Shown in pieces: positions 10,222 through 62,920 of a DNA stretch of 64,000 nt. Under the pieces are notes generated by a model. That model was not told the origin of the DNA. It searched no databases and saw only the letters and a program-made list of their open reading frames with translations. The number at the start of each line of letters is the position of its first letter. The stretch's first letter is position 1. The stretch lies in the IMG/VR virus record IMGVR_UViG_3300015371_000002, positions 60,251 through 124,250 of that record, one strand, 5' to 3'. The stretch is from a virus. The position numbers and the translations under genes were made by a program.

Positions 10222-10286
10222 AGCAGTGGTTCTCCAGGGCTTAGAGGCTTGACGGCTGAGCTTAGGGACTGGCATGCTTAGCGTTA

Positions 10287-11360
10287 ATGAACTCAACGCC
10301 TGACAACCAACGTGTCTGCATAAATTGCGGACGGCCCCACTTCCCCACCAGAAAGGGTAGGTGCAAGGCATGCGATTATTACTGGCACACCTACGGCATA
10401 GAACGACCGGAGGTTATATTTAAGTCTCCAGTAAAAGGGCATTTTGCTGACCGAGATGGTCGCTCATGCCCTAACTGTGGGGTCCTATTTAACCCGATTA
10501 AGTTCTATCGGCGCGAGGGAAAGTTCCTATTTGCGGGGCAGTTGCGCTACTGCACAAGAGAATGTGGAAACGCCTATCGACTACGTCAAGCGAAGGGAAA
10601 ACCAAGCAAACTGCGCGGAAAGCGACTGGTCAAGGAACCCACAAGCGGGTTTGCATGTCGTGGGTGCGGCATTCTATGGACGCCGATCTATTATCGGCGG
10701 GGGAGGCCGATCCGCTTACAGCGAAGGTTAGCAGCAAGAGCGTTATGCTCCGATGCCTGTCGGAAGATCATCCGCATACAATCAGAGCCTCAACGATTAG
10801 CTAGCGTTCCTAGGGGCCCTAAGCACCGTTTCTGGAAGGGCGGAGTTGGTGCCTTATACCGACGCGGACTGGGATGGGCCAAGAAGACCGAGACCGTTCG
10901 TAGAAAACAGAAATACAAGTGCGCAGAGTGCGGCAAGTCTGAGAGCGAACTTGGCAAGGTTCTTGATGTGCATCACAAGGTTCCCTTCCACAACTTCGCC
11001 ACTGCGCGTGATGCCAACGTCTTTTCTAATCTGGTAGGCTTGTGTCGATCGTGTCATGCAAAGGCTGACGCAGCCATTGTGTCACGGCAACTAAGCCTAG
11101 GTCTGGTTCTTGCTGGTCGCGAGTTTCGCCCGGGGAAGGCCCGAGGAGGGCGTTGCGCTTCGGCCAAACTGACCGAAGCCATGGTCATAGAGATGCGCCG
11201 CAGACGGGCTGATGGCGCTACTACAAGCTATCTAGCTAAGCTATTCGGTGTTTCCCCCTCTGTTTCCCAATATGCCTGCTCAGGCAAAACGTGGAAGCAT
11301 GTCGGCGGACCGCTAACTAGCGGTAGGACCTATGCTAAAGCCGTAAATCCCTCTGGATGA
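10287..11360 (+). CDS. HNH homing endonuclease with zinc ribbons
   Basis: 357 residues. Several CxxC pairs (residues 11/14, 61/64, 124/127) form N-terminal zinc ribbons. Residues 210-260 hold the HNH core: CAECG, then DVHHKVPFHN, then GLCRSCHAK, with paired cysteines and the HH metal-binding pair. The C-terminus (AKLTEAMVIEMRRRRADG...SYLAKLFGVSPSVSQYA) is a helix-turn-helix specificity domain typical of homing endonucleases. It is on the strand opposite the head genes and interrupts the terminase-capsid junction, consistent with insertion as a selfish element. Confidence 0.88.
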   Translation: MNSTPDNQRVCINCGRPHFPTRKGRCKACDYYWHTYGIERPEVIFKSPVKGHFADRDGRSCPNCGVLFNPIKFYRREGKFLFAGQLRYCTRECGNAYRLRQAKGKPSKLRGKRLVKEPTSGFACRGCGILWTPIYYRRGRPIRLQRRLAARALCSDACRKIIRIQSEPQRLASVPRGPKHRFWKGGVGALYRRGLGWAKKTETVRRKQKYKCAECGKSESELGKVLDVHHKVPFHNFATARDANVFSNLVGLCRSCHAKADAAIVSRQLSLGLVLAGREFRPGKARGGRCASAKLTEAMVIEMRRRRADGATTSYLAKLFGVSPSVSQYACSGKTWKHVGGPLTSGRTYAKAVNPSG

Positions 11361-11491
11361 CTTGATATTGCCCGTCGGCTGTTGGGTGGACGCGGCGCTG
11401 GGGAATATTCGGGGGCAGCCTCTAGTGGTCTTGCAGTAGTGCTACAGCAGTGCTATATGCAGTCCGACGAACGAAAGAGGCCCTGGTGCCG

Positions 11492-11632
11492 ATGCGGAAG
11501 CAACAAGTGAGCCTGACGGATCCGCAGGTCGAATGGCTTGAGGCTGAGGCCAAGCGTCTTGGCGTCTCCATCGCCGAGGTGATCCGTCGGATCATCGATA
11601 AGCATCGTGAGCAACGGGAGAACCGTGAGTAA
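11492..11632 (+). CDS. Ribbon-helix-helix (CopG/Arc-like) regulator
   Basis: 46 residues: strand QQVSLTDPQVEWLEA, then helix, turn GVSIAE and helix VIRRIIDKH, the standard RHH DNA-binding fold. ATG at 11492 has AAAGAGG eleven bases upstream; GTG at 11450 would add 14 residues. Upstream there is a direct repeat AGTGCTA (around 11435 and 11448) that could be an operator. It lies between the HNH gene and a structured non-coding stretch. Confidence 0.65.
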   Translation: MRKQQVSLTDPQVEWLEAEAKRLGVSIAEVIRRIIDKHREQRENRE

Positions 11633-12035: not shown

Positions 12036-13715
12036 CTAGGCGAACGCAATCTCATAGGTTGCAACACGCGCCGCATCCACACCGAGGCTAAGCACATCCG
12101 CCGCATCGAACAGCGCCATCGCCGCATCGATCTTCTGATCGCCGGCGTTAATCTTGGTCGCGCGGATGGCCGTGGCCGTCGGCTCGATCTTAATGTTCCC
12201 GATGCACCACGACATCATCGAGCTCTGGCTGTGCCACAACGTCCCTTTGGCCAGCCGCCGTTCGCATGTCTTCAGCGCGTTCATGAGCCGATAGCCCTGC
12301 CCAACCGGCCACAGCATCTTGTTCGCCTCGGTAATGCCGATCTCCGCCATCGCATCGACGATGTCGCCAACACCCGCCGGATCCACCGCCACGTGCGCCA
12401 AGATGCCCCTGGCCTTGATGTCGGCAATGATCTGCTTCATCGCCTCCAGGTCGTCCAGCATATCATCGCAAATCGTCAGTTCGCCGGCCCTTTCGAAGTC
12501 GAGCAGGCGCGGCGCGATCTGTTGCCGCCGCTCCAGCACGCTCCGGTGGCACCAAGCGTGGGACCATAGTAGCCACGACTTCGATGCCTTATCCCGGCCA
12601 TCAGCGTCGCGCCCCAGCACAGCAAAGCCGAACAGATCGTCCAGCCCACCGCCGTCCATCCCACACACCACCACCTCGGAGCGGTCCAACACAGCCTCAA
12701 GCGTGAGCGAAGGGTCGGTTTGCCGCTCCCAGAATTCCGCACCCGGCCAGCGGTCGGTCTGCAGCCCAAGGCCGATTTCGATGTTCAGATGCTGCGACGC
12801 CCAGCGCCGCAGTTCATGATCGCCCGCGGCAATCGCCGCCTCGTAGTCCGGGATCAGCCGCTCAATGGCCACCGTCAGCGTGGGGTTAACCATCCGCCAG
12901 TTGGCCGTGTCCCGCCAATCCACATCACGGGGAAACTCGTAGATCAACGGCAGCAGCGGCAATACCTGCTCGCCGTCACGCACCCGACGCGCATTATGCA
13001 GCGCCTCTTTGAACACACCCGACGGCGCACGCTCCGATTGCGTGGTAATCGAGATCAGGAACGCCTCGGGGTTGGCAATTAACCCACCGCGCAACTGCCC
13101 CATCACCCGATCCGCATCATGGGCGCCCGAAATGGCGTGTAGTTCGTCCACCAGCACACCGCACGGTTTGGAGCCGGTGACCACTCTGGGGTCGAATGAC
13201 TTAACCTTCAGGAAGGCCTTGGTCTGCCGATAGATGATGGTCTTGATGTGGTCCCGGATATGAAACTTGCCGGTCAGGATGGGGTCACTCTCGATCATCC
13301 CAACCGCCTGACGGAACGCCAGGTCGGCCACCTCCAGTGTCGGGGCGATCAGTAGGAATTCCGCCCGCGGTCGGCGGTTCATCAGCACCGCACAAATCAT
13401 AATCGCGGCTGCCGAAGTCGTCTTCCCGGACTTCTTGGCAATCATGCAGAAGAATTCGCGGATATGCCGCTCGTTGGTATCCGGGTCGTAGGAGCCGAAC
13501 ACCGCGCGAACCAGGTCCTTCTGCCACTGCCCAGCGACATCGCGGAATGGCGGTTGGTCGATGACATCGGGAAGCCGCAGCTTGGAGAAGATGCCGAGGG
13601 CTGCGTCTGCCTCGTCCTCGTTCAACGGCAGATCGGGAAGCAGCGACTGCCCCGCCTTAATGCGCGATTGCCAATCCGGCCGTGCGGTTGACCATGTGGG
13701 GAGGGACTGGTCCAT
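12036..13715 (-). CDS. terL: Terminase large subunit
   Basis: 559 residues. ATPase domain with Walker A AKKSGKTT (93-100), Walker B GVLVDELH (DE at 190-191) and a TTQ coupling segment; the C-terminal nuclease half has acidic motifs around VVVCGMDGGGLDD and the later AVDPAGVGDIVDAM. Terminase_1 family, the motor that cuts and packages phage DNA. ATG at 13715 directly follows the stop of the HNH gene (TAA-ATG) with no clear ribosome site, suggesting coupling with, or disruption by, the inserted nuclease gene. Confidence 0.93.
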   Translation of the reverse strand: MDQSLPTWSTARPDWQSRIKAGQSLLPDLPLNEDEADAALGIFSKLRLPDVIDQPPFRDVAGQWQKDLVRAVFGSYDPDTNERHIREFFCMIAKKSGKTTSAAAIMICAVLMNRRPRAEFLLIAPTLEVADLAFRQAVGMIESDPILTGKFHIRDHIKTIIYRQTKAFLKVKSFDPRVVTGSKPCGVLVDELHAISGAHDADRVMGQLRGGLIANPEAFLISITTQSERAPSGVFKEALHNARRVRDGEQVLPLLPLIYEFPRDVDWRDTANWRMVNPTLTVAIERLIPDYEAAIAAGDHELRRWASQHLNIEIGLGLQTDRWPGAEFWERQTDPSLTLEAVLDRSEVVVCGMDGGGLDDLFGFAVLGRDADGRDKASKSWLLWSHAWCHRSVLERRQQIAPRLLDFERAGELTICDDMLDDLEAMKQIIADIKARGILAHVAVDPAGVGDIVDAMAEIGITEANKMLWPVGQGYRLMNALKTCERRLAKGTLWHSQSSMMSWCIGNIKIEPTATAIRATKINAGDQKIDAAMALFDAADVLSLGVDAARVATYEIAFA

Positions 13716-15079: not shown

Positions 15080-16173
15080 TCAGCAATCAGCATCTACGCC
15101 ACTTGTGCCCTGGCGTGGTGCGCTTAGATATGCGGTGAGCTGGTAACCCTGCCGGTATTCTTTCCAATAATCCTTCAGATACCTGTTGACAGATACCCTG
15201 GGTATACCCATATTAGGAGTGAACCAAAGGACAAGCCCTCGAACAAGAGCCCACCAGACCAGAGGTTCCAGGAACAACAAGACTAGCGGCCGCCACCGAC
15301 ACCAAGGCAACCAACTAAGGAGCGACACGGATCGCTCGCCTACCAGAGAATAGAGACAGGTTCGGCTTGAACTTGACTTCGTTCTAAGTGGCGCCATCGC
15401 GTGCCACGTTCCCGTTGCTAGCCTATCGGGCAATGAAGCCTGCCCAGTCTCCTGCCTCTGGACGACGTGGCCAGTCACGAAGCACAGGAGTCACCGAATA
15501 GTGCCATGGGCAAAGGCATCGAACGATGCATGGGTGTCATGGGCGAAGTCGGAAACTGGGAATACTCCACATACAGGGGACAGCCTCGCATAGGGCTTAG
15601 GGTTGCAATTCGGTTGCGAAGCGTATGCTTGAGGCTTGTTCCCTTGCTGGTCCTGCCCATGCGTGGGGCGCCCGAGTGTGGTCAACGGCCACGCTGGTTT
15701 CGCCAGTTACACGGTAGGCAAGATGCTTTTGACGGTAGCAGTCCATTTGCACGGCGGACTACACCAGCATTCCAACCGCTGGCCCATCGTGCGCTAACGT
15801 TCGGCGGGTATGGGGTTATGGACAACCCTCCGTAGCGCGACACTTGGCTTCCCGTCACTTGCGACGGTTGCTCAGTATACGCGACGGCACTCCGCGAAGG
15901 ACGCGAGTAAAGCTACCCGTTACAGTGTGACCCGCGTTTGTGGCAATGGGCTGGCCTAGGCGCTTATAGGCGCTGCAAACGTAGCAAGATTGACGCTAGC
16001 GGTCACGCTGCAACGAATAGCAAGGAAAGCAGGCTTGGCGCACCCCGAAGCGTGAGAACTATCGGAGTCTCCTAAGTGACAGGATGCAAGGCGCTTATCT
16101 CTCACAGTCTGCTGCCATGCCGTCAGGCGGTTTCGGCCGCCTTGCGCAATGGCAATAGAGGGTTAACTCGGAA
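15080..16173. other. 1.1-kb stretch without a confident gene
   Basis: Two unconvincing frames exist (minus 15080-15478; plus 15467-15835), both with odd composition and no recognisable domain. The plus-strand promoter-operator at 15186 would transcribe this stretch as a long leader for 16174 onward. Just before 16174 is a GGCGG/CCGCC hairpin (around 16124-16140). I see no tRNA. It may hold structured or antisense RNA. Confidence 0.3.
15186..15214 (+). promoter_or_regulatory. Promoter-operator copy 1 (TTGACA-17-CATATT)
   Basis: -35 TTGACA (15186-15191), 17-base spacer, -10 CATATT (15209-15214). The spacer contains the palindrome ATACCC-T-GGGTAT, so a dimeric regulator bound there would block RNA polymerase. 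Three further copies lie downstream at 16915, 17975 and 20698. Confidence 0.6.
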
Positions 16174-16434
16174 ATGACGTATCAGGAAGCCAAGGCACGG
16201 CAAGCAGCGCTTGAGGCTAACGTAAAGCTGGCCGGCGCTGCATTGCGGCAATTCCCCGCAAACGGGCCGATGGGTCTAACGCCAGACTCGGTAAAAGCGT
16301 CGCCAGAGTTTCGGACGGCGAAGGCTTGCTTCGATCGGGCTTTCTCGCAATTAGCCGCGTTTAATGCGGCTTTCGTGAAAACGTATCGCAAGGAAGCGGC
16401 CGCAGAACGGAAAGCTCGGAGAAATGGGAGATAG
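16174..16434 (+). CDS. Hypothetical helical protein (86 aa)
   Basis: Starts MTYQEAKARQAALEAN and ends in a very basic tail (KEAAAERKARRNGR). Predominantly helical. GAGGG precedes the ATG by about eleven bases. No family recognised. First gene of the plus-strand run of small genes. Confidence 0.65.
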   Translation: MTYQEAKARQAALEANVKLAGAALRQFPANGPMGLTPDSVKASPEFRTAKACFDRAFSQLAAFNAAFVKTYRKEAAAERKARRNGR

Positions 16435-16438
16435 GCGA

Positions 16439-16708
16439 ATGTTATGCGACCTTGGCAACCCCATGCCTAAGGGGACGCTGGTTACCGTCAAGACAAACAA
16501 CGGTGGCAAGATTACTGCCCCATTGGCGATGGCTTATCGTCCCTCTTATCGCGCCGTGATTGACGTTAATGGTGACGACGTTGTCATTCCAGCCACGCGC
16601 ATAACGTCAATTCAGAAGGAATTGCCACATCCATGCAAGCGATGCGGTATGATCGTTCCCGATGCTCGCGGCATCGTCCATTGCTGGCACCGCGAGTGCC
16701 CAGAGTAA
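16439..16708 (+). CDS. Small protein with C-terminal zinc-finger-like motif
   Basis: 89 residues. Residues 9-55 form a beta-rich segment (GTLVTVKTNNGGKI); the tail HPCKRCGMIVPDARGIVHCWHRECP carries cysteines and histidines spaced CxxC...CxHxxC that could bind zinc. ATG at 16439 is favoured by GGAG eight bases upstream; the ATG at 16424 has none at a usable distance. Function unknown. Confidence 0.6.
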   Translation: MLCDLGNPMPKGTLVTVKTNNGGKITAPLAMAYRPSYRAVIDVNGDDVVIPATRITSIQKELPHPCKRCGMIVPDARGIVHCWHRECPE

Positions 16709-16718
16709 GGAGTCAGTC

Positions 16719-16904
16719 ATGACACGCCATGAATCCGCATATGTTTGGGAGATCGAACGTCTGCCGCACGAATTGCCGCAGGAAATGCCGCGCGACGAAC
16801 CAATGCTGCAGATTGTCCCCCATGAACGCGAGATCGATCACACACCAGCCGCAGTGATTATCCGGCCACCGATCGATCAACACGGAAATTTTCGTCCGTG
16901 GTAG
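16719..16904 (+). CDS. Hypothetical acidic protein (61 aa)
   Basis: Starts MTRHESAYVWEIERL, with a repeated ELPQEMPRDEP segment and a C-terminal PPIDQHGNFRPW. AAGGAG six bases before the ATG fixes the start. No known family. The next repeated promoter begins ten bases after its stop. Confidence 0.6.
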   Translation: MTRHESAYVWEIERLPHELPQEMPRDEPMLQIVPHEREIDHTPAAVIIRPPIDQHGNFRPW

Positions 16905-16914
16905 GGATTACCGC

Positions 16915-16943
16915 TTGACGATACCCCACGGTATCCTTATGTA
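16915..16943 (+). promoter_or_regulatory. Promoter-operator copy 2 (TTGACG-17-TATGTA)
   Basis: Identical to copy 3 over about 38 bases (from GGATTACCGC through TTATGT). The spacer contains ATACC-CCAC-GGTAT. It drives the 56-residue gene at 16960 and probably 17164. Confidence 0.65.
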
Positions 16944-16959
16944 GGGGGCAACGAAGCGG

Positions 16960-17130
16960 ATGGATACACAGATGACTACCTACCGCGTCACAGCCCAGAG
17001 CTACACCAGCAGCCAGCGGATTGCGAAGCTAATCACCAGTGACACTGAGCAGTCCGCACTACGGCAAGCTAACAAGGAGCTCGATGGCGATTGGTATGTT
17101 CTGGATATCAAGCCGGTATCTAAGGCATAG
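16960..17130 (+). CDS. Small hypothetical protein (56 aa)
   Basis: Reads MDTQMTTYRVTAQSY to the end DIKPVSKA. Two in-frame ATGs (16960, 16972) are possible; the first has AGGGGG twelve bases upstream. Pattern of alternating polar and hydrophobic residues suggests a small alpha-beta fold. It lies just downstream of promoter copy 2. No family recognised. Confidence 0.55.
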   Translation: MDTQMTTYRVTAQSYTSSQRIAKLITSDTEQSALRQANKELDGDWYVLDIKPVSKA

Positions 17131-17163
17131 GCGCCCAAACAAGCAAACCCAAAGGCAACGACA

Positions 17164-17460
17164 ATGACAAAGCATCGCACCCGAAAGTCACGAATTGAGA
17201 TTATGGTTGTTACACTGCCGGCATACTGGGCATGCGCAATAGTCAATGGCGATTGCAGCAGTATGGATGATACGGAAGTTTCCGACATGGAGCGTGAGCT
17301 TGAAGCGCTATCTGCTGAGGGCTGGTCAATTATTGACGTTGCTCGCGATAAGAGCGGGGAGCCCGACGAGTCGCGCTTTACATCGTCCTTCCGTCTGTAT
17401 GGCGGCAATTGCGCTGGTGGCGACGTATTGGATTACGTGGCTATTCGCGACAAGCGCTAA
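17164..17460 (+). CDS. Conserved phage protein, DUF6926-like
   Basis: 98 residues. The segment IEIMVVTLPAYWACAIVNGD followed by RELEALSAEGWSIIDVARD and the C-terminal LYGGNCAGGDVLDYVAI matches a small family seen in phages and plasmids (ITLPAYWA...INGD). Function unknown. A truncated relative appears at 30297-30422 on the other strand. The leader GCAAACCCAAAGG precedes the ATG. Confidence 0.6.
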   Translation: MTKHRTRKSRIEIMVVTLPAYWACAIVNGDCSSMDDTEVSDMERELEALSAEGWSIIDVARDKSGEPDESRFTSSFRLYGGNCAGGDVLDYVAIRDKR

Positions 17461-17470
17461 GGCGGACACA

Positions 17471-17509
17471 TAGCAGCGTTACGGCGCTGCTATAGCCTGC
17501 CTTCGCAGG
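17471..17509 (+). other. Tandem hairpins after the DUF6926-like gene
   Basis: TAGCAGCG (17471-17478) pairs perfectly with CGCTGCTA (17485-17492), and CCTGC (17496-17500) with GCAGG (17505-17509) around a CTTC tetraloop. No U-run follows, so this is more likely an mRNA stability or processing element than a terminator. Confidence 0.4.
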
Positions 17510-17540
17510 AAACATAACAAGAGCAACCCAAGAGGTTACA

Positions 17541-17924
17541 ATGAGAACTAAGCACACAGAGCCGCTGTCCAACTGGTGGACCGGAACGGAATCGGCGTGG
17601 GAGCGGTTGCCCTATGACGAACGCAAGGAATTAGCATTTGCGGCAACGGGTTGTGAAGTTGCATGGCCACGTTGGCCCGCGCCAGTTCACTGCTTGCATA
17701 CAGACTGCCGCATCCGGCGCGGCGAAATTCTGCCGATCGTGAAGCTTAACGGCACCATGCGGTATGAAGCCCAAACCGGCTGGTGGCGCTTTATCGAGGA
17801 CCGCAATCAACTGGCGCGGATATACCGCCACTACCGCCGGGAAGCACGCAAGGTCGGCGAGTATGATCTATGGAAGCTTGGCGCTGTTGGTGTGGCTTTG
17901 TTAGGCGTTTCGCTTTCCAAGTAA
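17541..17924 (+). CDS. Hypothetical protein with C-terminal membrane helix
   Basis: 127 residues. Trp-rich N-terminus (LSNWWTGTESAWERLPYDE), a CLHTDCRIRRGEI segment, and a C-terminal hydrophobic helix LGAVGVALLGVSL. AAGAGG five bases before the ATG. Could be tail-anchored. Family unknown. Confidence 0.6.
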   Translation: MRTKHTEPLSNWWTGTESAWERLPYDERKELAFAATGCEVAWPRWPAPVHCLHTDCRIRRGEILPIVKLNGTMRYEAQTGWWRFIEDRNQLARIYRHYRREARKVGEYDLWKLGAVGVALLGVSLSK

Positions 17925-17974
17925 CGGGAGTAGCAACCGCCGGCCGAAACGCGATTAAATAGTCGGATTACCGC

Positions 17975-18003
17975 TTGACGATACCCCACGGTATCCTTAT
18001 GTT
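17975..18003 (+). promoter_or_regulatory. Promoter-operator copy 3 (TTGACG-17-TATGTT)
   Basis: Same boxes and ATACC-CCAC-GGTAT palindrome as copy 2, with a 35-base leader to the ATG at 18038. The leader contains GCAAACCCAAAAGGAG, a second recurrent leader sequence. Confidence 0.7.
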
Positions 18004-18037
18004 GTGGGTAACGCAGCAAACCCAAAAGGAGACAACA

Positions 18038-18397
18038 ATGGAACACTGGGAAACGGTCTGGCAATTCAATACCGCACGCTACACGGTGGCGCTGTCTGTC
18101 AGCGACGAAGAGTCAGATCCTGCGGACAGTTTCAGTTTTGAGGATGATGTCGAATATGCTCGTGAAGGCGGTTGGCATTGGTTCTGCGCACGGGTGCAAG
18201 TCATCTTCCGCGACGAGAACAACCCGAAGAACTGGGCGGTGCGGCGTGACTTGGTGTTAGGCGAGGACTTCATCGGCGGATGTAGCTATGAAGACTTAAA
18301 GTCCTTCAGGTCTGACGGCTATTTCCGCGACATGGTGGCGGAAGCCATTAGCGAGGCGCGCGGCAAGCTGTCTCGGTTGTGCAGTAAGGCAGCATAG
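18038..18397 (+). CDS. Conserved phage protein of unknown function
   Basis: 119 residues, beginning MEHWETVWQFNTARYTVAL, with an FEDDVEYAREGGWHWFCARV segment, a GEDFIGGCSYEDLKSF segment and the ending YFRDMVAEAISEARGKL. This arrangement is familiar from many tailed phages of Proteobacteria, where it is always uncharacterised. AAAAGGAG precedes the ATG; promoter copy 3 drives it. Confidence 0.7.
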   Translation: MEHWETVWQFNTARYTVALSVSDEESDPADSFSFEDDVEYAREGGWHWFCARVQVIFRDENNPKNWAVRRDLVLGEDFIGGCSYEDLKSFRSDGYFRDMVAEAISEARGKLSRLCSKAA

Positions 18398-18406
18398 GAG
18401 AGGACA

Positions 18407-18649
18407 ATGCACGCGCTTTCAGTAATCCGCTATCCTTCGGGGCGCTACGGCTTCGTCGGCAGGGTGCCCGCTGTTCTGGCTTATGAGGGCAGCGAAGAAG
18501 ACATGGAAACCGCTGCCCACTACGGGCCGGGAATTGCACGAAGGATTGCGAGCAGGAACGGCCGCGAATTCCGCGCGCTCTCATGGGCCACTCGCGAGGA
18601 TGCGCTTGCTGCCGCTGCTGCCCACGGCTTCGACGTCCATAACGGCTGA
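18407..18649 (+). CDS. Conserved small phage protein (80 aa)
   Basis: Begins MHALSVIRYPSGRYGFVGRVP and ends ALAAAAAHGFDVHNG. The GRYGFVG...P pattern recurs in small phage proteins that lie next to the 18038-type gene. Ribosome site AGGAGAGG. Ten bases after the upstream stop, so same operon. Unknown function. Confidence 0.65.
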   Translation: MHALSVIRYPSGRYGFVGRVPAVLAYEGSEEDMETAAHYGPGIARRIASRNGREFRALSWATREDALAAAAAHGFDVHNG

Positions 18650-18757
18650 CCATGCTGTAAGGTGCACCTGTGCGGTGTCACCTTGCACAATGGCCAGAGT
18701 GACCATTGACGCGCCATACAGAGGGCGCGACGGCACATAAACGGAAGGCAAACCCAG

Positions 18758-19339
18758 ATGTCAGCGACCAACAAGTGCCCATGTTGTGGGCGCGCCATGC
18801 CGCGCCAGCGGACAGCGACAAAACCTAAGCTAATGACGGGCGAACAGTTCTTTGAAGCTCGCATGGTAGCCTGTCGCGCGATTGCGGCAGACCTAGGCGA
18901 AAATTGGCATCTAGTCGAGGGTGCAAGCTACTGGGCCACGATTCCCGCCAGGCTGCGATCGTTCAAAACCGCACGCGGCACAAAGATTAGGTGCAACCGT
19001 GAGGTAAGGTTGCCAGCGGGCCGGTATTGGCCGGCGGGCTGTCTGCCTGACGGTTTAGTCGTGGCTCCGCCGTATGCCAGAGACAAGACTCCGCCAGAGG
19101 TGGTGCGGCGCATGGCGGCGACACGCGAGCTTGGCAGGCTGGAACGTGAATATTCCCACGATCGCAGCCGTGCATTGCACGTCAACGTTCGTTGGCATGA
19201 CTCAAACTTGAGTCGCTACTACACGCCAGAGGATAGGGCAGCAGATATACAACGGGCTTGGGACGTTCGCCGCGAGCTTTCACAGGCTAGACGCGACAGG
19301 GCTCTGGTCGCTGATGATACCCTGCCTATGGCAGCATGA
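18758..19339 (+). CDS. Zinc-ribbon protein of unknown function
   Basis: 193 residues. N-terminal CPCCGRAMP zinc knuckle, a helical centre and a basic C-terminal half (YTPEDRAADIQRAWDVRREL). The ATG is preceded by GCAAACCCAG and, further up, GGAAGG. The 108-base gap before it holds short inverted repeats (CGCGCC/GGCGCG near 18709-18728). Family unknown. Confidence 0.6.
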   Translation: MSATNKCPCCGRAMPRQRTATKPKLMTGEQFFEARMVACRAIAADLGENWHLVEGASYWATIPARLRSFKTARGTKIRCNREVRLPAGRYWPAGCLPDGLVVAPPYARDKTPPEVVRRMAATRELGRLEREYSHDRSRALHVNVRWHDSNLSRYYTPEDRAADIQRAWDVRRELSQARRDRALVADDTLPMAA

Positions 19340-19401
19340 CATGACGGCGTGCTGCGCTCACGTGGCAGGCTACCCCTCTCCAATCGAAGGAGATTAGTAA
19401 G

Positions 19402-19647
19402 ATGGACAAGAAAAGAACAAAGACGGCATATGGCGAATATCGTCCAGATTTGGGTCGCTTCATACTGCGCCCAGTGAAGCGCATTCCATTTATGGCGCCA
19501 ATTCCTTGCGCGGTGTTCCCTTCGATACAAGAAGCCGAGCAGGCTGCCGACGCCCATGGTTATCGAGTTATCTGGGACAAGTCACCCACTCCAATCGAAG
19601 GGGGCCAATTCCGGGCTCCCTGTCCAATCGAAGGGGATCGAAAATGA
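19402..19647 (+). CDS. Hypothetical protein ending in translated repeat (81 aa)
   Basis: Begins MDKKRTKTAYGEYRPDLGRF; residues 40-58 (VFPSIQEAEQAADAHGYRVI) look like a small alpha-beta domain. Its last 20 residues are encoded by two consecutive start-associated repeats (SPTPIEGG...CPIEGDRK). Start defined by the repeat at 19380. Stop overlaps the next ATG (ATGA). Function unknown. Confidence 0.6.
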   Translation: MDKKRTKTAYGEYRPDLGRFILRPVKRIPFMAPIPCAVFPSIQEAEQAADAHGYRVIWDKSPTPIEGGQFRAPCPIEGDRK

Positions 19648-19853
19648 ATCTCAGTGAGAGAACCGCGTTGATCAATCGCATTGCTAGCCTGCCCGGACCC
19701 GTCACGCTTGACGGAAAGCCGGCGCTGATTTGCGGACTGACCAGCGACTTCCTAACCGTGGTCACTATGACCTTACCGCGAGTGTCTTGTCAGTTCTCGT
19801 GGGAAGCGGTGGCGCGATTGCTCGACAAGGGCGGAGCTTTCCGTTCCTTCTGA
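19644..19853 (+). CDS. Hypothetical protein (69 aa)
   Basis: Begins MNLSERTALINRIASLPG, with a predicted beta-rich middle (VTLDGKPALICGL). Overlaps the previous gene by four bases and starts 20 bases after the repeat at 19624. No family recognised. Confidence 0.6.
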   Translation: MNLSERTALINRIASLPGPVTLDGKPALICGLTSDFLTVVTMTLPRVSCQFSWEAVARLLDKGGAFRSF

Positions 19854-19910
19854 CCAGTCTCGATCCTGTCCTCGCTTCGGTAGCATAACTCCAATCGAAG
19901 GAGCTTTGAA

Positions 19911-20069
19911 ATGAAGACCTATACACTTAGCGTCCTTGTCTCAGTCGACCTAGCGTTTTCCAACGACGAAGCGGCGAAAGAATGGGCGGAAGAGCACACT
20001 GTTTTCGATATGCTCGACAAAGGCGCTGGCGTTGGTGAAGTCGTCATTACTCCAATCGAAGGGGATTAA
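19911..20069 (+). CDS. Small protein (52 aa) with TPIEGD tail
   Basis: Reads MKTYTLSVLVSVDLAF, then an acidic helix DEAAKEWAEEH, ending VVITPIEGD. The last residues are encoded by the next start-associated repeat. Starts after the repeat at 19891. The form resembles other small phage proteins of beta-alpha type, function unknown. Confidence 0.6.
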   Translation: MKTYTLSVLVSVDLAFSNDEAAKEWAEEHTVFDMLDKGAGVGEVVITPIEGD

Positions 20070-20070
20070 A

Positions 20071-20271
20071 ATGCTCACTCTCAGAGAGGCCGACATACTC
20101 CGCGCCTACTGGCGCCAAACCTACGCCGTAGTGCGCGTCCGTCGGGATGGCACAGTTGAGGCGAAGCAGTGCCCATCATCGCCGTGGGCCATCCTGGAAA
20201 CGCCGGAACAAGCGCGCCTTAGCGCCGCCGAGCTCTTGGCCATTCCGGGCAATCGAAGGGGATCGAAATGA
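20071..20271 (+). CDS. Hypothetical protein (66 aa)
   Basis: Begins MLTLREADILRAYWRQTYAV. Starts one base after the previous stop, 19 bases after the repeat at 20052. The tail NRRGSK is the next repeat read in another frame. Stop overlaps the next start (ATGA). Confidence 0.6.
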   Translation: MLTLREADILRAYWRQTYAVVRVRRDGTVEAKQCPSSPWAILETPEQARLSAAELLAIPGNRRGSK

Positions 20272-20432
20272 CAATGCATGATCTAGGGGACGTGTTTCAA
20301 CACGCGTTTCACCACGAACGATCCCCGCGAGCGAGCGCGGCGGAGGTCGCGACATTCTGCGGCATGGTGGCCGCTGCGCTGCTGGTGACGTGGTTCACCA
20401 CGGGCCACGCGTTGCTTATGGCGATGCGGTAG
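20268..20432 (+). CDS. Small membrane protein (54 aa)
   Basis: Begins MTMHDLGDVFQHAFHHE, followed by a hydrophobic helix (VATFCGMVAAALLVTWF) and a short tail. Overlaps the upstream gene by four bases and uses a diverged repeat (GCAATCGAAGGGG) as ribosome site. Unknown function. Confidence 0.55.
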   Translation: MTMHDLGDVFQHAFHHERSPRASAAEVATFCGMVAAALLVTWFTTGHALLMAMR

Positions 20433-20458
20433 ACCCATTCCAATCGAAGGGGGCCAAA

Positions 20459-20701
20459 ATGGCCATGAAACGTCAGCGCCTATGGACCGTATGGGGACAA
20501 GATCCCCTGCGCCCAGGCAATCGCATGTTCAAGACCGAAGCTGAAGCATTGGCCTATGCGGCCGTGCTGGCGCCGATATCTAGCGGATGGGCGATGGTTC
20601 AGGATCATTGGACGCGCGAGATCAGGACCGTGCGGGCGATATACCCCACTCCAATCGAAGGGGAGCGAAAATACCCTGTCCAATCGAAGAATACCGATTG
20701 A
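20459..20701 (+). CDS. Hypothetical protein (80 aa) with translated-repeat tail
   Basis: Begins MAMKRQRLWTVWGQDPLRPG. Middle portion FKTEAEALAYAAVLAP resembles a short helical domain. Residues from TPIEGERK onward are encoded by two orphan repeats (20651, 20680) that lead into promoter copy 4, so its 3' end may have been extended by repeat insertion. Confidence 0.55.
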   Translation: MAMKRQRLWTVWGQDPLRPGNRMFKTEAEALAYAAVLAPISSGWAMVQDHWTREIRTVRAIYPTPIEGERKYPVQSKNTD

Positions 20702-20726
20702 CAGATACCCTGCGGTATACTATATT
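20698..20726 (+). promoter_or_regulatory. Promoter-operator copy 4 (TTGACA-17-TATATT)
   Basis: Best match to the sigma70 consensus of the four. Spacer holds ATACC-CTGC-GGTAT. The leader to the ATG at 20764 contains GCAAATCCAGAGG. Confidence 0.7.
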
Positions 20727-20763
20727 GCAGGCAACAACAATTCAGCAAATCCAGAGGCAACCA

Positions 20764-21330
20764 ATGACCGAATATAGCAATCCACGCTTACGCGCCGTGA
20801 TCGACAATTGGCCCATCGGCAGCAAGCGTTGCACCGCAACGTTTATGATCGAGCGCAACGGCAAGGGAGAGCGCGGAGTTCGCACAACGGTTGGTGCACC
20901 CAAGAAGCTGACCTATGCCCGCAAGGCGCGCATTGTCGACGGTGACGATGGGCGAACGTATATCGCCGAGCTGTCGGCATACGGTTTCGTCTCAATTATG
21001 CGCGGCGACATGAAGTTTCAGCATGAAGCGGTGTTCGATACCGACCCGCGGTTTCGGGCGATCATGTCGCTATTCTCGGAGGGCCGACAGATGACCTGCT
21101 TTCCCGTTCGTGAGCCATCACTCGCAGCGTTAACCGACGCGCCAGTGTCTTTCCGCTACGGATCGAACAAGCGGCGCATCCTAGTCGATGCGTTGACGGC
21201 TCGGGCCATCCTGGCCGTTGTCGCTGCTATCAGCGATGAGAACCGCGAGAAGCTAGAGCGTATGATTAAGTCACCATCCGGACTTGCGAAAGTTGCCGAC
21301 TTTGCCATGAGCAAGTGTTCGATAGCTTGA
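20764..21330 (+). CDS. Hypothetical protein (188 aa) under promoter copy 4
   Basis: Begins MTEYSNPRLRAVIDNWPIGS. Beta-rich first half with a basic patch (KKLTYARKARIVDGDDGRTY), helical C-terminus (ENREKLERMIKSPSG). AGAGG before the ATG. Largest gene in this part of the array and the only one with its own promoter copy in the repeat zone. Family unknown. Confidence 0.65.
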   Translation: MTEYSNPRLRAVIDNWPIGSKRCTATFMIERNGKGERGVRTTVGAPKKLTYARKARIVDGDDGRTYIAELSAYGFVSIMRGDMKFQHEAVFDTDPRFRAIMSLFSEGRQMTCFPVREPSLAALTDAPVSFRYGSNKRRILVDALTARAILAVVAAISDENREKLERMIKSPSGLAKVADFAMSKCSIA

Positions 21331-21362
21331 CTCTCGCATGTCCAATCGAAGGGGATCATTCA

Positions 21363-21608
21363 ATGGAACACGTCACGCGATATGTCGGCACCTATGTGAA
21401 CAGCAACGGCGAGCGAACCTTAATGTCGGCAGCACAAGGACGCCATACCTACGCTTCGGCTGAAGAAGCGCAGGCCTGGATCGACGCTGTTACCACGAAC
21501 AACAGCGCCGATACGCTGAGGCAGGTCTGGGGCGATAACCCGCAATTCGAGGTTCGCCCCTGCCCCTGCTACCCGGGGCACTTTGACCCGCAAACTGTAT
21601 GGTTCTGA
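21363..21608 (+). CDS. Hypothetical protein (81 aa)
   Basis: Begins MEHVTRYVGTYVNSNGERT; the centre ASAEEAQAWIDAVT resembles the small alpha-beta proteins in this run. Starts 21 bases after the repeat at 21342. Ends CYPGHFDPQTVWF. No known family. Confidence 0.6.
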   Translation: MEHVTRYVGTYVNSNGERTLMSAAQGRHTYASAEEAQAWIDAVTTNNSADTLRQVWGDNPQFEVRPCPCYPGHFDPQTVWF

Positions 21609-21673
21609 CGGCGCGGGCGCCCCATTCATAGCGGGGCGCCTCTCCAATCGAAGGAGCGAAATAGGAGGAAATC

Positions 21674-22136
21674 ATAGGCTTAGATATGTATTTGGAAAAG
21701 CGCCCATTACGTGAAGAACTGGGACAACATGGGACCGGAAGAGCGGCATCAGGTAACGGTGCTAAAAGGTGGCAAGCCGACGACCATTAAGCCGGAACGC
21801 GTCAGTTACGTGATCGAGCAGGTTGCATACTGGCGTAAGGCAAACGCTATTCATCAGTGGTTCGTCGAACACGTGCAGAATGGCGAAGATGACTGCAAGC
21901 CATATGTATGCGACTCTGACAAGCTGAAGGAACTATTGAGCGCAGTGGATGCGGTGCTGAAATGCCGCAAGAAGGCCAAGGAACTATTACCCACACAGGA
22001 AGGGTTTTTCTTCGGCAGCATCGAGTATGACGAATACTATCGGCAATACCTGAAGGACACCAAGCGGATGCTTGAGGAGATCCTTGCCGAACCCGATGCA
22101 GACATCAGTGAGTATGTTTATCAGTCTAGTTGGTAA
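21674..22136 (+). pseudogene. GLDMYL-type phage protein with lost start and frameshift
   Basis: Reading from ATA at 21674 gives GLDMYLEKR, then a one-base shift near CCC at 21703-21705 restores YVKNWDNMGPEERH and the rest of the family (YWRKANAIHQWFVEHVQ, DDCKPYV, LLPTQEGFFFG, DEYYRQYLKDTKRM, ending YQSSW). The family normally begins MGLDMYL..YVKNWD, so here the start codon is ATA and one base is extra. AGGAGG stands five bases before the ATA. A shortened product could start at GTG 21711 (141 aa). Either a decaying gene or a sequencing error. Confidence 0.7.
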
Positions 22137-22162
22137 CGCCGCTCCAATCGAAGGAGGCCAAA

Positions 22163-22351
22163 ATGATCGTCCGTAGTCCAGACCCGCGTTTGGTTCGTAA
22201 GGCGCACAAGGCGCTGATGTGGTCGCGCGATTATCAGAGCGGCGAGGCCACGCGACCAGATCCGCTGGCATTCACGCCGGAGATGGAGCGCGCCACGCAG
22301 CAGTGGATTGCGCACATGCTGCGTCTTGGCATTGGGAAGGAAACGCGATGA
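22163..22351 (+). CDS. Hypothetical protein (62 aa)
   Basis: Begins MIVRSPDPRLVRKAHKALMW and contains a WIAHMLRLGIGKE helix. Starts 19 bases after the repeat at 22144 (AAGGAGGCCAAAATG). Overlaps the next gene by four bases. Unknown family. Confidence 0.6.
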   Translation: MIVRSPDPRLVRKAHKALMWSRDYQSGEATRPDPLAFTPEMERATQQWIAHMLRLGIGKETR

Positions 22352-22788
22352 AAACCGATGACGATGATGCGGCCATGCCAAAGAGCATGTTCGCCTTGCC
22401 CACGCACTTGCGGGACCTGCTGGACCGTTACGCGAAGGAGCGCGGGATCAAGAAGCCCGAAGCTGTGCGCCATATCCTGGCACTGTTCTTCGCCAGCCAA
22501 GAGGACGGACACCTGTCCAGCCAGGACGCGTTGGCGCGCATGGCGGAGGTGGCCGGGCAACAGGCTGGCAACCGCAACGCCCGCGAGCATGGCCGTGAGG
22601 CATGGTCAGGCGAGGATTTCCGCATAGCCGGCGAGGCAGCGGGGCGGATGGCGGCACGGTTGGCAGAAATCTGGGCCCCACTCCAATCGAAGGGGGCCGA
22701 ACCAGATGCTCTTACCTCGACCGATGTTGCCGTGGAGATTAGTGACGGTTTGGCTACCCCGAGGGTGGCCCGGCGGAAACGCGCGTGA
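22348..22788 (+). CDS. Ribbon-helix-helix-like regulator with extended tail
   Basis: 146 residues. Residues 10-50 (MPKSMFALPTHLRDLLDRYA...KKPEAVRHILALFFAS) fit an RHH or similar short DNA-binding domain. From about residue 115 a start-associated repeat (22683) is read in frame as PLQSKGAE, so the last 30 residues may be a later extension. GGAAGG before the ATG; coupled by ATGA to the previous gene. Confidence 0.6.
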   Translation: MKTDDDDAAMPKSMFALPTHLRDLLDRYAKERGIKKPEAVRHILALFFASQEDGHLSSQDALARMAEVAGQQAGNRNAREHGREAWSGEDFRIAGEAAGRMAARLAEIWAPLQSKGAEPDALTSTDVAVEISDGLATPRVARRKRA

Positions 22789-22828
22789 TCGCAACCCCAC
22801 TCCAATCGAAGGGGGCATGGAGGAAAGC

Positions 22829-23404
22829 ATGACTACCGAGCGGCGGGCGCAGCAGCACGAGCAAGTCCTAAGGCATTGCCTGCGAGCGCTAGCTGGCGAT
22901 TTGCTGCGTGCCATTGCGGGCGGTAGCGCCAGTAAGATTGTCGAACGCATTGGCGAGGCCAATGAGGCGATAGAGAATTGGTTTGATGGACGGCAGTGCA
23001 TGCCATTCGGCCAACGCACGGTCGAAGCTATGCTTTGGTTAGAGGAAGATCGCGACGGCTATGATGATCACAGAAAAGTCGAGCACGACATGATCATTGC
23101 CGCACTGCGAACGGTATCGGCTCGCATGCTACCTATGCCGCATATTCGTAATGATTGGTTTAAGTATGAAGACATCAACGCTCTAGCTGAGCTGCGCAAG
23201 AAGCGGCGAGAGCAGATGGAAAGAAAGTGGGCAAAATGGCGGGCGCGCTCGCCAGAGCACAAACAACCGGCAAATGATGTCTTACCGAAAGCCAACAAGG
23301 CGAAAGTCAACAAGACTGAACGACGGATCGCAATCCGAAAGCAAGCGCGGCAGGCTCAGAGAAGTCGTATGGGCATCGCCGCCACTCCAATCGAAGGAGA
23401 CTAA
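22829..23404 (+). CDS. Hypothetical basic helical protein (191 aa)
   Basis: Begins MTTERRAQQHEQVLRH. Helical N-terminal half, then a strongly basic tail (KKRREQMERKWAKWRAR, RRIAIRKQARQAQRSR) and a repeat-derived TPIEGD end. The ATG at 22829 has GGAGG five bases upstream; ATG 22817 is too close to the repeat's own GGGGG. Nucleic-acid binding is plausible from charge only. Confidence 0.6.
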   Translation: MTTERRAQQHEQVLRHCLRALAGDLLRAIAGGSASKIVERIGEANEAIENWFDGRQCMPFGQRTVEAMLWLEEDRDGYDDHRKVEHDMIIAALRTVSARMLPMPHIRNDWFKYEDINALAELRKKRREQMERKWAKWRARSPEHKQPANDVLPKANKAKVNKTERRIAIRKQARQAQRSRMGIAATPIEGD

Positions 23405-23406
23405 AT

Positions 23407-23511
23407 TTGGCATGTCCTGACATGGGCTGGCCGGCTGTCATTGGCGGGCTGGGGGCTCTCTGGGCAGTCGTGGCCCTGATGCTGGGGCTGGCCTGGTTGT
23501 TGCACGAATGA
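23407..23511 (+). CDS. Tiny single-helix membrane protein (34 aa)
   Basis: TTG start two bases after the previous stop, 20 bases from the repeat at 23387. Sequence LACPDMGWPAVIGGLGALW continues as one hydrophobic helix ending WLLHE. The repeat positions the start, which is the main evidence that it is translated. Confidence 0.5.
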   Translation: MACPDMGWPAVIGGLGALWAVVALMLGLAWLLHE

Positions 23512-23536
23512 CCCACTCCAATCGAAGGTGACTGAA

Positions 23537-24085
23537 ATGCGCCTCGTGCACTACGCGTCGGAGCCGTTTGGCGAGTTGGAGGAATTCGGTGAACCACCCG
23601 AGAAAGACTGGCGCACCTATTTCTACAAACCGCATGGTTTGTGGGTATCCGACGAAGATGCCGAGGGTGGCTGGCGTGAGTGGTGCATCGACAACCGGTT
23701 CAATCTGGAGTGCCTCACCCACGTGCATGATGTGGTATTGGCGCCCGATGCCAAGGTGTTGGTCATCAGCAACCCTCGTCGGCTCGACCAGTTCACCGCC
23801 GATTTTCGCCTACCGTCCTATTACGACAAGAAGCTTGCGGACGATATGCGGAGCTTCGTTGCAAGTTACGGCCTCGGATGGCGCGAGGTGGCGAAGATCT
23901 ACGACGGCCTGATTATTACGCCATACCTCTGGGAGCGGCGGCTCGATCCGACGTGCATGTGGTATTACGGATGGGATTGCGCCGGCGGTTGCTTATGGCA
24001 CACGCGCGCTATCCAGTCGGTCACGCTGCGTGAGGTCGTGCCAATCCCTGAGACCACTCCAATCGAAGGGGAGTCAAATGGTTGA
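23537..24085 (+). CDS. Conserved phage protein (KPHGLWVSD/WYYGWDCA type)
   Basis: 182 residues. Motifs FYKPHGLWVSDED, GWREWCIDNRF, THVHDVVLAPDAKVL, YDGLIITPYLWERRLD and WYYGWDCAGGCLWHTRAI recur, in this order, in an uncharacterised family common to many tailed phages. Starts after the repeat at 23518; the repeat at 24059 encodes its TTPIEGE tail. Function unknown. Confidence 0.75.
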   Translation: MRLVHYASEPFGELEEFGEPPEKDWRTYFYKPHGLWVSDEDAEGGWREWCIDNRFNLECLTHVHDVVLAPDAKVLVISNPRRLDQFTADFRLPSYYDKKLADDMRSFVASYGLGWREVAKIYDGLIITPYLWERRLDPTCMWYYGWDCAGGCLWHTRAIQSVTLREVVPIPETTPIEGESNG

Positions 24086-24281
24086 GCCTGACAGCATCGA
24101 GGTGGACGGCGTCTACCGCACCATGGAGGCGTTCTGGACGGTGACCGAGATCGTCGATGGTAAGGTGGACCTGCGCCGTGATGACGGAAAGCTGGCGCGG
24201 TTTGGCTTGGCGCACTTCGCACAGATCGTGGAACGTAGGGTTACTCCAATCGAAGGGGGCCAAAACAATGGACCACGGTGA
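24078..24281 (+). CDS. Hypothetical protein (67 aa)
   Basis: Begins MVEPDSIEVDGVYRTMEAFW, a beta-rich SH3-like pattern (VTEIVDGKVDLRRDDGKLARF). Overlaps the previous gene by eight bases. Its end (VTPIEGGQNNGPR) is repeat-encoded. Confidence 0.6.
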   Translation: MVEPDSIEVDGVYRTMEAFWTVTEIVDGKVDLRRDDGKLARFGLAHFAQIVERRVTPIEGGQNNGPR

Positions 24282-24534
24282 TGGCAATATGCAGCGCTGG
24301 AAGCGTGGCGCGACGAGAGAAGAATTACGCATGTCTCTCGTGGGTTTAATGGAGAGCATTAACCATGATGCCAAGGAGGGCATCGAAATCTGCGTTCGGC
24401 TAAGCACCAAGGAAGGCTGCGAAGGTCCGGGCACCCTAGGCACCGACTATTTCATCAAGATTATGCAGGCGGTTACGTGGATTGATGATCTCGTGGGGGA
24501 TTTGGAGCTTGCCGAAGAAAGGCTGATCCCATGA
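24268..24534 (+). CDS. Hypothetical helical protein (88 aa)
   Basis: Begins MDHGDGNMQRWKRGATREEL; acidic helical C-terminus (WIDDLVGDLELAEERL). Starts 22 bases after the repeat at 24246 and overlaps its neighbours on both sides. Unknown family. Confidence 0.6.
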   Translation: MDHGDGNMQRWKRGATREELRMSLVGLMESINHDAKEGIEICVRLSTKEGCEGPGTLGTDYFIKIMQAVTWIDDLVGDLELAEERLIP

Positions 24535-24698
24535 GCCCGGCGGTTCTGGTGCTGCTCTTCACGTTCGCCAGCGGCGCGGGTGCCGTAGCGACGGTCGACA
24601 TGCCGTCTATGCAGATATGCAAGGCTGCTGCGAACGAAGCCATTGTCGCGCATGAACGCGATACGTCAGCGCGGTGCATATCACGCGTCGCAAAATAA
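24531..24698 (+). CDS. Small protein with N-terminal signal-like helix (55 aa)
   Basis: Begins MSPAVLVLLFTFASGAGAVAT, a typical signal peptide with AGA-VA cleavage-like end, then a mature part with two cysteines (MQICKAAANEA...RCISRVAK) that could form a disulfide in the periplasm. Coupled by ATGA to the previous gene. Confidence 0.55.
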   Translation: MSPAVLVLLFTFASGAGAVATVDMPSMQICKAAANEAIVAHERDTSARCISRVAK

Positions 24699-24743
24699 TC
24701 TACTTGCGTTCCTCGAGGGGTGTCCAATCGAAGGGGGCCAAAA

Positions 24744-42664: not shown

Positions 42665-42717
42665 ACTACAGCACACACCATAACATGTGTCAACATATAA
42701 TTAGCATTATTTTGTCA
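42665..42717. promoter_or_regulatory. AT-rich divergent promoter region
   Basis: Minus strand: -35 TTGACA (42693-42688), 17 bases, -10 TGTAGT (42670-42665), driving the membrane-protein operon. Plus strand: TATAAT at about 42696-42701, 15 bases before the relaxase GTG/ATG region. Also contains ATAAT-TAGC-ATTAT inverted repeat. Could also hold oriT, since origins of transfer commonly lie beside the relaxase gene; no nick motif is identified. Confidence 0.5.
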
Positions 42718-54985: not shown

Positions 54986-55162
54986 TTATTTTTTCTTCGT
55001 TGCTCCGTGGTGCTCGCAGTCCTGCTCGCTAAGCACCTGATCAATCATGCGGCGTATTGATTCAGCGCGACTCGGTAGATCGGATTGCTGTCGCCGCCAA
55101 TCGTCAATCTGCCGAACCATGTCGGGCGACAGTTTAAGCGTCAGCGCGTGAGTGAGAGGCAT
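54986..55162 (-). CDS. Ribbon-helix-helix regulator
   Basis: 58 residues, paralogue of 46868-47038. Strand THALTLKLSPDMV, helices DDWRRQQ and SRAESIRRMIDQ. Divergent from the ParB-like gene at 55282; the palindrome between them is the likely operator. ATG at 55162. Confidence 0.75.
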   Translation of the reverse strand: MPLTHALTLKLSPDMVRQIDDWRRQQSDLPSRAESIRRMIDQVLSEQDCEHHGATKKK

Positions 55163-55174
55163 TTTCACAATCCC

Positions 55175-55203
55175 TTGACACTTGGGGTGCCCCAATATAT
55201 GTG
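55175..55203 (+). promoter_or_regulatory. Divergent promoter with GGGG-TG-CCCC operator
   Basis: -35 TTGACA (55175-55180), 17 bases, -10 TATGTG (55198-55203). Spacer is TTGGGG-TG-CCCCAA (55182-55195), a near-perfect palindrome. TATATT reads on the minus strand for the RHH gene. Regulator binding would shut both promoters. Confidence 0.7.
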
Positions 55204-55281
55204 ATGCTCGGTCACTCAGAGAAGCCCGATCAACGGAAATGGTTCCAGCGACGGATCCGCGAATGACCAGGAGCGAAAACA

Positions 55282-62600: not shown

Positions 62601-62912
62601 CTATTCGTCATCCTGTCTCAGCTTGTCTCGTAGGCGTGTTTCAAACAGCGCCCGGAGCTGTTTCTCCGTTAGCGCCACGTTGAGGATTTTCGCAGCTCGT
62701 CCGATTCGCTCGAACCATTCCGGTGGAATGCCGTCCCGCCGATGCCACGCCCGGGCGGTGCTGGCGGGCACACCGATTTCCCTGGCCAGCGCTGCCCGCC
62801 GGGGGAACAGATCAATCGCCTCTCTGTATGAATTCAATGACTTCGCCACCTTCTCTGCCCAGGTTCCCGTTCCGTTGCAATGTGCAACCCCCCTCGTTAG
62901 CGGGTCAACCAA
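62601..62912 (-). CDS. Cro/carph-type HTH repressor
   Basis: SYREAIDLFPRRAALAREIG, VPASTARAWHRRDGIPPEWF and IGRAAKILNVALT match the Carph/isopro HTH repressor pattern. The chosen TTG at 62912 is uncertain; a GTG at 62849 would leave only the HTH. Divergent from the Gp157 promoter, so it probably represses it. Confidence 0.7.
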   Translation of the reverse strand: MVDPLTRGVAHCNGTGTWAEKVAKSLNSYREAIDLFPRRAALAREIGVPASTARAWHRRDGIPPEWFERIGRAAKILNVALTEKQLRALFETRLRDKLRQDDE

Positions 62913-62920
62913 TTACCGTA

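What the first reader, a model, noticed from the sequence alone, without database searches (positions are those of the whole stretch)
15186..20726. Four promoters share one palindromic operator (ATACC...GGTAT)
Copies at 15186, 16915, 17975 and 20698 have sigma70-like boxes with ATACC/GGTAT palindromes in the spacer; two are identical over about 38 bases. They imply one regulator controlling the whole small-gene region, as a phage repressor would.
Basis: partly seen in the sequence, partly recalled or inferred. Interest (0 to 1): 0.8.

Follow-up and report, generated by a model that had tools for sequence, protein, structure and literature searches.

The report
Phage promoter set with shared operator
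A 124-kb environmental phage carries four near-copies of a bacterial-type promoter, each with the same small palindrome between its two boxes, probably the docking site of one repressor that switches a block of small genes; the same layout turns up in unrelated phages, so the kind is known, but here the repressor is still unidentified.

Summary
Four sigma70-type promoters at 15186, 16915, 17975 and 20698 carry ATACC-N3/4-GGTAT in a 17-bp spacer; ATACCC-N1-4-GGTAT occurs nowhere else in the 124,250-base record. The 16905 and 17965 copies are a recent duplication (38 identical bases), so there are three independent sites, and 15186 has a 3-bp instead of a 4-bp centre. I add a further half-site, WTACC, exactly 2 bp upstream of each TTGAC. 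Conservation falls off outside this ~37-bp core. A read-through RNA hairpin is not supported. The best reading is a repressor operator inside early promoters. Support from outside: the layout TTGAC-N-ATACC-N4-GGTAT-N-TATNNT recurs in unrelated phage contigs, two to four copies in some, and in three of them it lies divergent from a Cro/CI-type (HTH_3) gene near an integrase or recombinase. Close relatives lack this small-gene block and its promoters. Known kind, new lineage-specific member, regulator unknown.

The parts
15179..15214 (+). Promoter-operator 1: ATACC half-site 15179-15183, -35 TTGACA 15186-15191, dyad ATACCCTGGGTAT 15193-15205 (3-bp centre), -10 CATATT 15209-15214
15215..16173 (+). 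About 950 bases downstream of promoter 1 with no convincing gene, no tRNA and no Rfam match; untranslated leader or unrecognised element
16908..16943 (+). Promoter-operator 2: TTACC half-site 16908-16912, -35 TTGACG 16915-16920, dyad ATACCCCACGGTAT 16921-16934, -10 TATGTA 16938-16943
16960..17130 (+). First ORF after promoter 2 (56 aa, unknown function)
17968..18003 (+). Promoter-operator 3: TTACC half-site 17968-17972, -35 TTGACG 17975-17980, dyad ATACCCCACGGTAT 17981-17994, -10 TATGTT 17998-18003; 17965-18002 is identical to 16905-16942
18038..18397 (+). First ORF after promoter 3 (119 aa, weak match to phrog_5644, unknown function)
20691..20726 (+). Promoter-operator 4: ATACC half-site 20691-20695, -35 TTGACA 20698-20703, dyad ATACCCTGCGGTAT 20705-20718, -10 TATATT 20721-20726; it directly follows a copy of the CCAATCGAAG leader motif at 20680
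20764..21330 (+). First ORF after promoter 4 (188 aa); relatives in 11 other phage contigs, none with this promoter upstream
11492..11632 (+).
22348..22788 (+). RHH-like 146-aa protein downstream of promoter 4; a candidate regulator, unproven
   Evidence: weak PHROG match; low-confidence model
62601..62912 (-).

Best explanation
The four sites are host-type (sigma70) promoters of a rightward, probably early, block of small phage genes. ATACC-N4-GGTAT in the spacer is the operator of one dimeric repressor, probably phage-encoded and probably of the Cro/CI (XRE) type. Binding between -35 and -10 would exclude RNA polymerase; WTACC just upstream of -35 may help as an extra half-site. Shown: anatomy, copy number, confinement to this block, conservation pattern, recurrence of the layout in other phages. 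Inferred: that transcription starts there, that a protein binds, that it represses, that it is XRE-type. P15186, with its 3-bp centre, may be a weak or differently read site.
For: The dyad lies at the same place in four sigma70-type promoters; ATACCC-N1-4-GGTAT is found nowhere else in 124 kb. Excluding the recent duplicates, cores are 25-32 identical of 35 (71-91%), against 28-50% upstream and 25-75% downstream, highest for P17975/P20698. Both half-sites are invariant across all four while most of the 4-bp centre differs. The layout TTGAC-N1,2-ATACC-N4-GGTAT-N1-4-TATNNT was found in 18 viral contigs, many intergenic with TATAAT or TATACT at 17 bp, several with an SD and ATG behind. Related records G002/G003 hold four such promoters each (relaxed dyad) and G005/G006/G009 two each, with no match to the pattern read backwards. 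In L120 the site lies between two divergent HTH_3 genes next to a serine recombinase; in L132 and L134 it lies divergent from an HTH_3 gene with a tyrosine integrase nearby.
Against: No regulator was identified in G000: no HTH_3 protein over the curated cut-off, no S24/CI-type peptidase, no integrase, though the record may be incomplete. The four copies could share their dyad by descent. The 3-bp centre of P15186 is unusual for one dimer. Relatives with ~90% identical terminase DNA lack the block, so conservation across related phages could not be tested. XRE adjacency in the other phages was read in few contexts, selected by the pattern itself.
Confidence: 0.66

Rival explanations
1. A promoter cassette was copied by local recombination in a plastic small-gene region; the palindrome came along by descent and binds nothing specific.
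For: 16905/17965 are near-perfect duplicates over 53 bases (92%). Downstream leaders of P17975 and P20698 are also alike (15 of 20). P20698 abuts a copy of the CCAATCGAAG leader motif. The block is absent from relatives.
Against: Between the diverged copies the half-sites are invariant while most of the centre and flanks changed. The same dyad-in-spacer layout occurs in unrelated phages.
Confidence: 0.2
2. A host regulator, not a phage repressor, recognises the palindrome, so the phage genes respond to host physiology.
For: No convincing phage regulator for the site was found. The promoters are host-type.
Against: A stricter form of the module gave only six matches in 84,980 bacterial and archaeal genomes, scattered over unrelated organisms. 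In other phages the layout sits beside phage HTH genes.
Confidence: 0.1
3. The palindrome acts as an RNA hairpin (weak terminator or attenuator) in transcripts reading through from upstream.
For: 20698 and 17975 fold better than most shuffles (z -2.3 and -1.6).
Against: 15186 and 16915 do not (z -0.46 and -0.30), predicted stems differ between copies, and no U-run follows (sequence).
Confidence: 0.04

Closest known systems
Extended start-associated sequences (ESAS) of cluster K mycobacteriophages, e.g. Adephagia (PMC3203893, PMC11373665)
   Same: Several near-identical intergenic SigA/sigma70-type promoters (7 in Adephagia, boxes 17-18 bp apart) each carrying an inverted repeat; a repressor is suspected but unidentified and judged unlikely to be the immunity repressor; the genome also has a repeated leader motif at translation starts (SAS).
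   Different: ESAS repeats are 15-17-bp imperfect arms separated by 12-14 bp; here 5-6-bp arms with a short centre inside the spacer. No sequence relation is claimed; only P20698 lies next to a leader-motif copy.
Cro/CI (XRE)-type operators in early promoters of temperate phages (lambda type; here L120, L132, L134)
   Same: Dyad inside a sigma70 promoter, near 14 bp, at the start of a rightward early block; L120, L132 and L134 have the same ATACC-N4-GGTAT in the spacer beside HTH_3 genes.
   Different: No adjacent CI/Cro pair is found here, and there are four dispersed copies rather than a tripartite operator.
Cluster A mycobacteriophage stoperators (PMC6550527)
   Same: Several repressor sites in one genome, oriented with transcription.
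   Different: Stoperators are 13-14 bp, asymmetric, 20-30 per genome and mostly outside promoters; these are symmetric, four in number and all inside promoters.
T4-type mobile promoter cassettes (Arbiol et al. 2010; known only by citation and memory, the paper is not held)
   Same: Promoter cassettes duplicated in a plastic small-gene region.
   Different: As remembered, those pair an early promoter with a stem-loop; a conserved hairpin was not found here.

Membership tests
Phage repressor operator set (XRE/Cro-CI type) | Dyad-symmetric site overlapping sigma70 promoters | tested here: met
   Four of four sites, 17-bp spacing
Phage repressor operator set (XRE/Cro-CI type) | Constant half-site geometry for one dimer | tested here: inconclusive
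   4-bp centre in three sites, 3-bp in P15186
Phage repressor operator set (XRE/Cro-CI type) | Cognate repressor gene in the genome, normally autoregulated at the same operator | tested here: inconclusive
   No HTH_3 protein over cut-off and no S24; candidates 11492 and 62601 have other repeats upstream; record may be incomplete
Phage repressor operator set (XRE/Cro-CI type) | Protein binding and repression in lysogens | not testable with these tools
   Needs gel shift, reporters, RNA-seq
ESAS (cluster K mycobacteriophages) | Repeated promoter with inverted repeat, multiple copies | tested here: met
   Four copies; definition from PMC11373665
ESAS (cluster K mycobacteriophages) | 15-17-bp arms separated by 12-14 bp, upstream of an SAS copy | tested here: not met
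   Arms 5-6 bp with a short centre; only P20698 is next to a leader-motif copy
Stoperators | Asymmetric sites, mostly outside promoters, 20-30 per genome | tested here: not met
   Symmetric, four, all in promoters; definition from PMC6550527
Intrinsic terminator / RNA hairpin | Stable conserved hairpin followed by a U-run | tested here: not met
   z-scores -0.46, -0.30, -1.62, -2.29; stems differ

The most novel reading that the evidence does not exclude
TTGACA-N1,2-ATACC-N4-GGTAT-N2,3-TATAAT is a widely reused operator-promoter layout in phages that share no genes, built for one structural class of HTH repressor. Here it has been multiplied as a cassette to put a variable small-gene block, absent from relatives, under one switch.
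Probability: 0.25. Interest if true: 0.5.

Novelty: new member of a known kind. Interest (0 to 1): 0.36.

Why it matters
It predicts a single regulon for a set of phage genes of unknown function, and gives an exact DNA bait (ATACCCCACGGTAT) to find its regulator. It adds an independent case, outside mycobacteriophages, of repeated palindrome-bearing promoters combined with a repeated translation-start motif; the regulator is also unknown in the mycobacteriophage case. The shared layout in unrelated phages can be tested as a marker of HTH-repressor operators.

Tried and rejected
Megablast of 15-24 kb against phages and blastn of 14.8-18.4 kb against plasmids: no match. Relatives by terminase: ~90% identical loci lack the block; where the contig reaches that far they have about 1 kb with an RHH gene and an AGTGCTA promoter. 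Relatives of the 119-aa protein: none. Relatives of the 188-aa protein: 11 loci, none with the operator. Strict module with the upstream half-site in viral contigs and genomes: mostly hits inside genes, apparently chance, L088 possibly excepted. RNA hairpin: rejected. A shared TTACC-TTGACA at 62914 looked like a fifth half-site, but TACC-N1-4-TTGAC is at chance level in the genome (6 found; about 4 expected from my own estimate assuming equal base frequencies). AlphaFold models of the 22348 and 62601 proteins had mean pLDDT 57 and 52; a fold search with the first gave nothing. tRNA and Rfam in the leader: none.

Full report
What is there. The window is bases 60251-124250 of a 124,250-base IMG/VR virus record. 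Leftward genes (terminase 12036-13715, capsid region 7861-10371) end near 15 kb, and a rightward array of small ORFs runs from about 16.2 to 25 kb. Four promoters face into this array at 15186, 16915, 17975 and 20698. Each has TTGAC, a 17-bp spacer and a -10-like hexamer, with ATACC and GGTAT inside the spacer. ATACCC-N1-4-GGTAT has exactly these four places in the record; the looser pattern gives 6 hits in the window against 0.24 expected.

Each promoter also has WTACC ending 2 bp before TTGAC; this 12-mer has exactly four exact matches in the window. The centre is 3 bp at 15186 and 4 bp elsewhere. 16905-16942 and 17965-18002 are identical, and 53 bases are 92% identical, so these two are a recent duplication. 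Leaving out that pair, the ~37-bp core keeps 25-32 of 35 bases between copies while upstream flanks keep 28-50% and downstream flanks 25-75%. Half-sites are invariant; most of the centre is not.

Chance. Among 188 TTGAC words in the record, only eight are followed by a dyad with 6-bp arms; three of the four promoters are among them, 20698 having 5-bp arms. In the other loci fetched up to then, no dyad arm was found in three or more TTGA[CT] spacers.

Relatives. Terminase relatives at about 90% DNA identity (L017-L022, L024) resume homology with the window at 23.4-25 kb where the contig reaches that far (L019, L024); they have about 1 kb in place of the 15-23.4 kb block. That 1 kb carries an RHH gene whose promoter has AGTGCTA, not ATACC...GGTAT. 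The RHH gene at 11492 in the window has two AGTGCTA copies in its own promoter. The simplest reading is that this RHH family serves AGTGCTA and not the ATACC operator. The HTH gene at 62601 shares its upstream region with 62972; it has ATGTTGTCAAACAT there and no ATACC-N4-GGTAT. A further RHH gene at 54986(-) lies beside a TTGACA promoter with TTGGGGTGCCCCAA in the spacer. So this phage seems to use several different operators placed in promoter spacers.

The same layout elsewhere. A scan of viral contigs for TTGAC-N1,2-ATACC-N4-GGTAT-N1-4-TATNNT gave 18 contigs, about 11 independent sequences. Two (L119 and its copies, L121) look like coding sequence. Many of the rest are intergenic with near-consensus -10 boxes at 17 bp, e.g. 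TTGACACATACCGTACGGTATGTTATAAT (L130, L134), TTGACAAATACCTATAGGTATGCTATACT (L120), TTGACAATACCCTAGGGTATGAGTATAAT (L125). With a relaxed dyad, G002 and G003 hold four such promoters each, three of them within 260 bases and one 7 kb on; G005, G006 and G009 hold two each; the pattern read backwards has none. In L120 the site lies between a Cro-like HTH_3 gene and a divergent CI-like gene next to a serine recombinase; in L132 and L134 it lies divergent from an HTH_3 gene near a tyrosine integrase; L125 has an XRE-like ORF about 5 kb downstream (by eye). These contexts make an XRE-type repressor the most likely partner of such sites. They do not prove it for this phage, and they were selected by the pattern.

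Mechanism. A dimer on the dyad would occupy the spacer between -35 and -10 and keep RNA polymerase off; release would start the small-gene block at several points at once. P16915, P17975 and P20698 are placed right before ORFs. P15186 faces about 950 bases without a recognised gene, tRNA or Rfam family. An RNA hairpin at the palindromes is not supported.

Regulator. Searches of the record found no integrase, no S24 peptidase and no HTH_3 protein over cut-off; one RHH over cut-off (11492) and two weaker ones (54986(-), 46844). RHH-like 22348 lies downstream of P20698 and is a candidate; its model is of low confidence. DUF6471 at G000:1722-1964 is another possible DNA-binding protein (the HTH reading is from memory). 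The record ends inside an open frame, so the repressor may lie outside it.

Compared with what is known. The nearest described case is the ESAS set of cluster K mycobacteriophages: seven near-identical SigA promoters with inverted repeats, suspected to be bound by an unidentified regulator, in a genome that also has repeated start-associated sequences (PMC11373665, PMC3203893). It works alike, but the repeats differ in size and spacing, so this is not a member. Cluster A stoperators differ in symmetry, number and place (PMC6550527). I rate it as a new member of a known kind, repeated phage operator-promoters, with a lineage-specific distribution and an unknown repressor.

Noticed in passing
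window 19380-24733: The 10-mer CCAATCGAAG occurs 18 times in 5.4 kb on the + strand, mostly as the ribosome-binding leader right before small ORFs, so many of these proteins end in PIEG; resembles the start-associated sequences of cluster K mycobacteriophages.
   Followed up: partly
window 17137-17166, 18010-18040, 18727-18758, 20735-20766: A second leader type, roughly AGCAAACCCAAAGGCAAC, precedes several ORFs in the promoter-bearing part of the array.
   Followed up: no
window 11437-11456; L018 331, L019 1239, L024 2031: AGTGCTA repeats inside promoters of RHH genes in this phage and its relatives, a likely autoregulatory RHH operator.
   Followed up: partly
window 55175-55205: TTGACA promoter with the palindrome TTGGGGTGCCCCAA in its spacer, between an RHH gene (54986, minus strand) and the gene at 55282.
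   Followed up: no
window 14737: Contigs L016, L017 and L020 all end at the position matching 14737 inside the small terminase gene; an assembly branch point or a genome end.
   Followed up: no
window 42717-45512: A 931-aa protein like relaxase-helicases annotated as AAA family ATPase or TraA on Mesorhizobium and other alphaproteobacterial plasmids (up to 49% identity) in a genome with terminase and capsid genes; possible phage-plasmid traits.
   Followed up: no
window 15215-16173: About 950 bases after promoter 1 without a convincing gene, near the minimum of the cumulative GC skew.
   Followed up: partly
window 60260-61100: About 850 bases of irregular repeats rich in GGC-N2-GGCA-like units.
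   Followed up: no
L125 4420-4735 and L126 1746-2062: Related phages with three promoters in about 260 bases, each with an ATAC...GTAT palindrome in the spacer, plus a fourth 7 kb away.
   Followed up: partly
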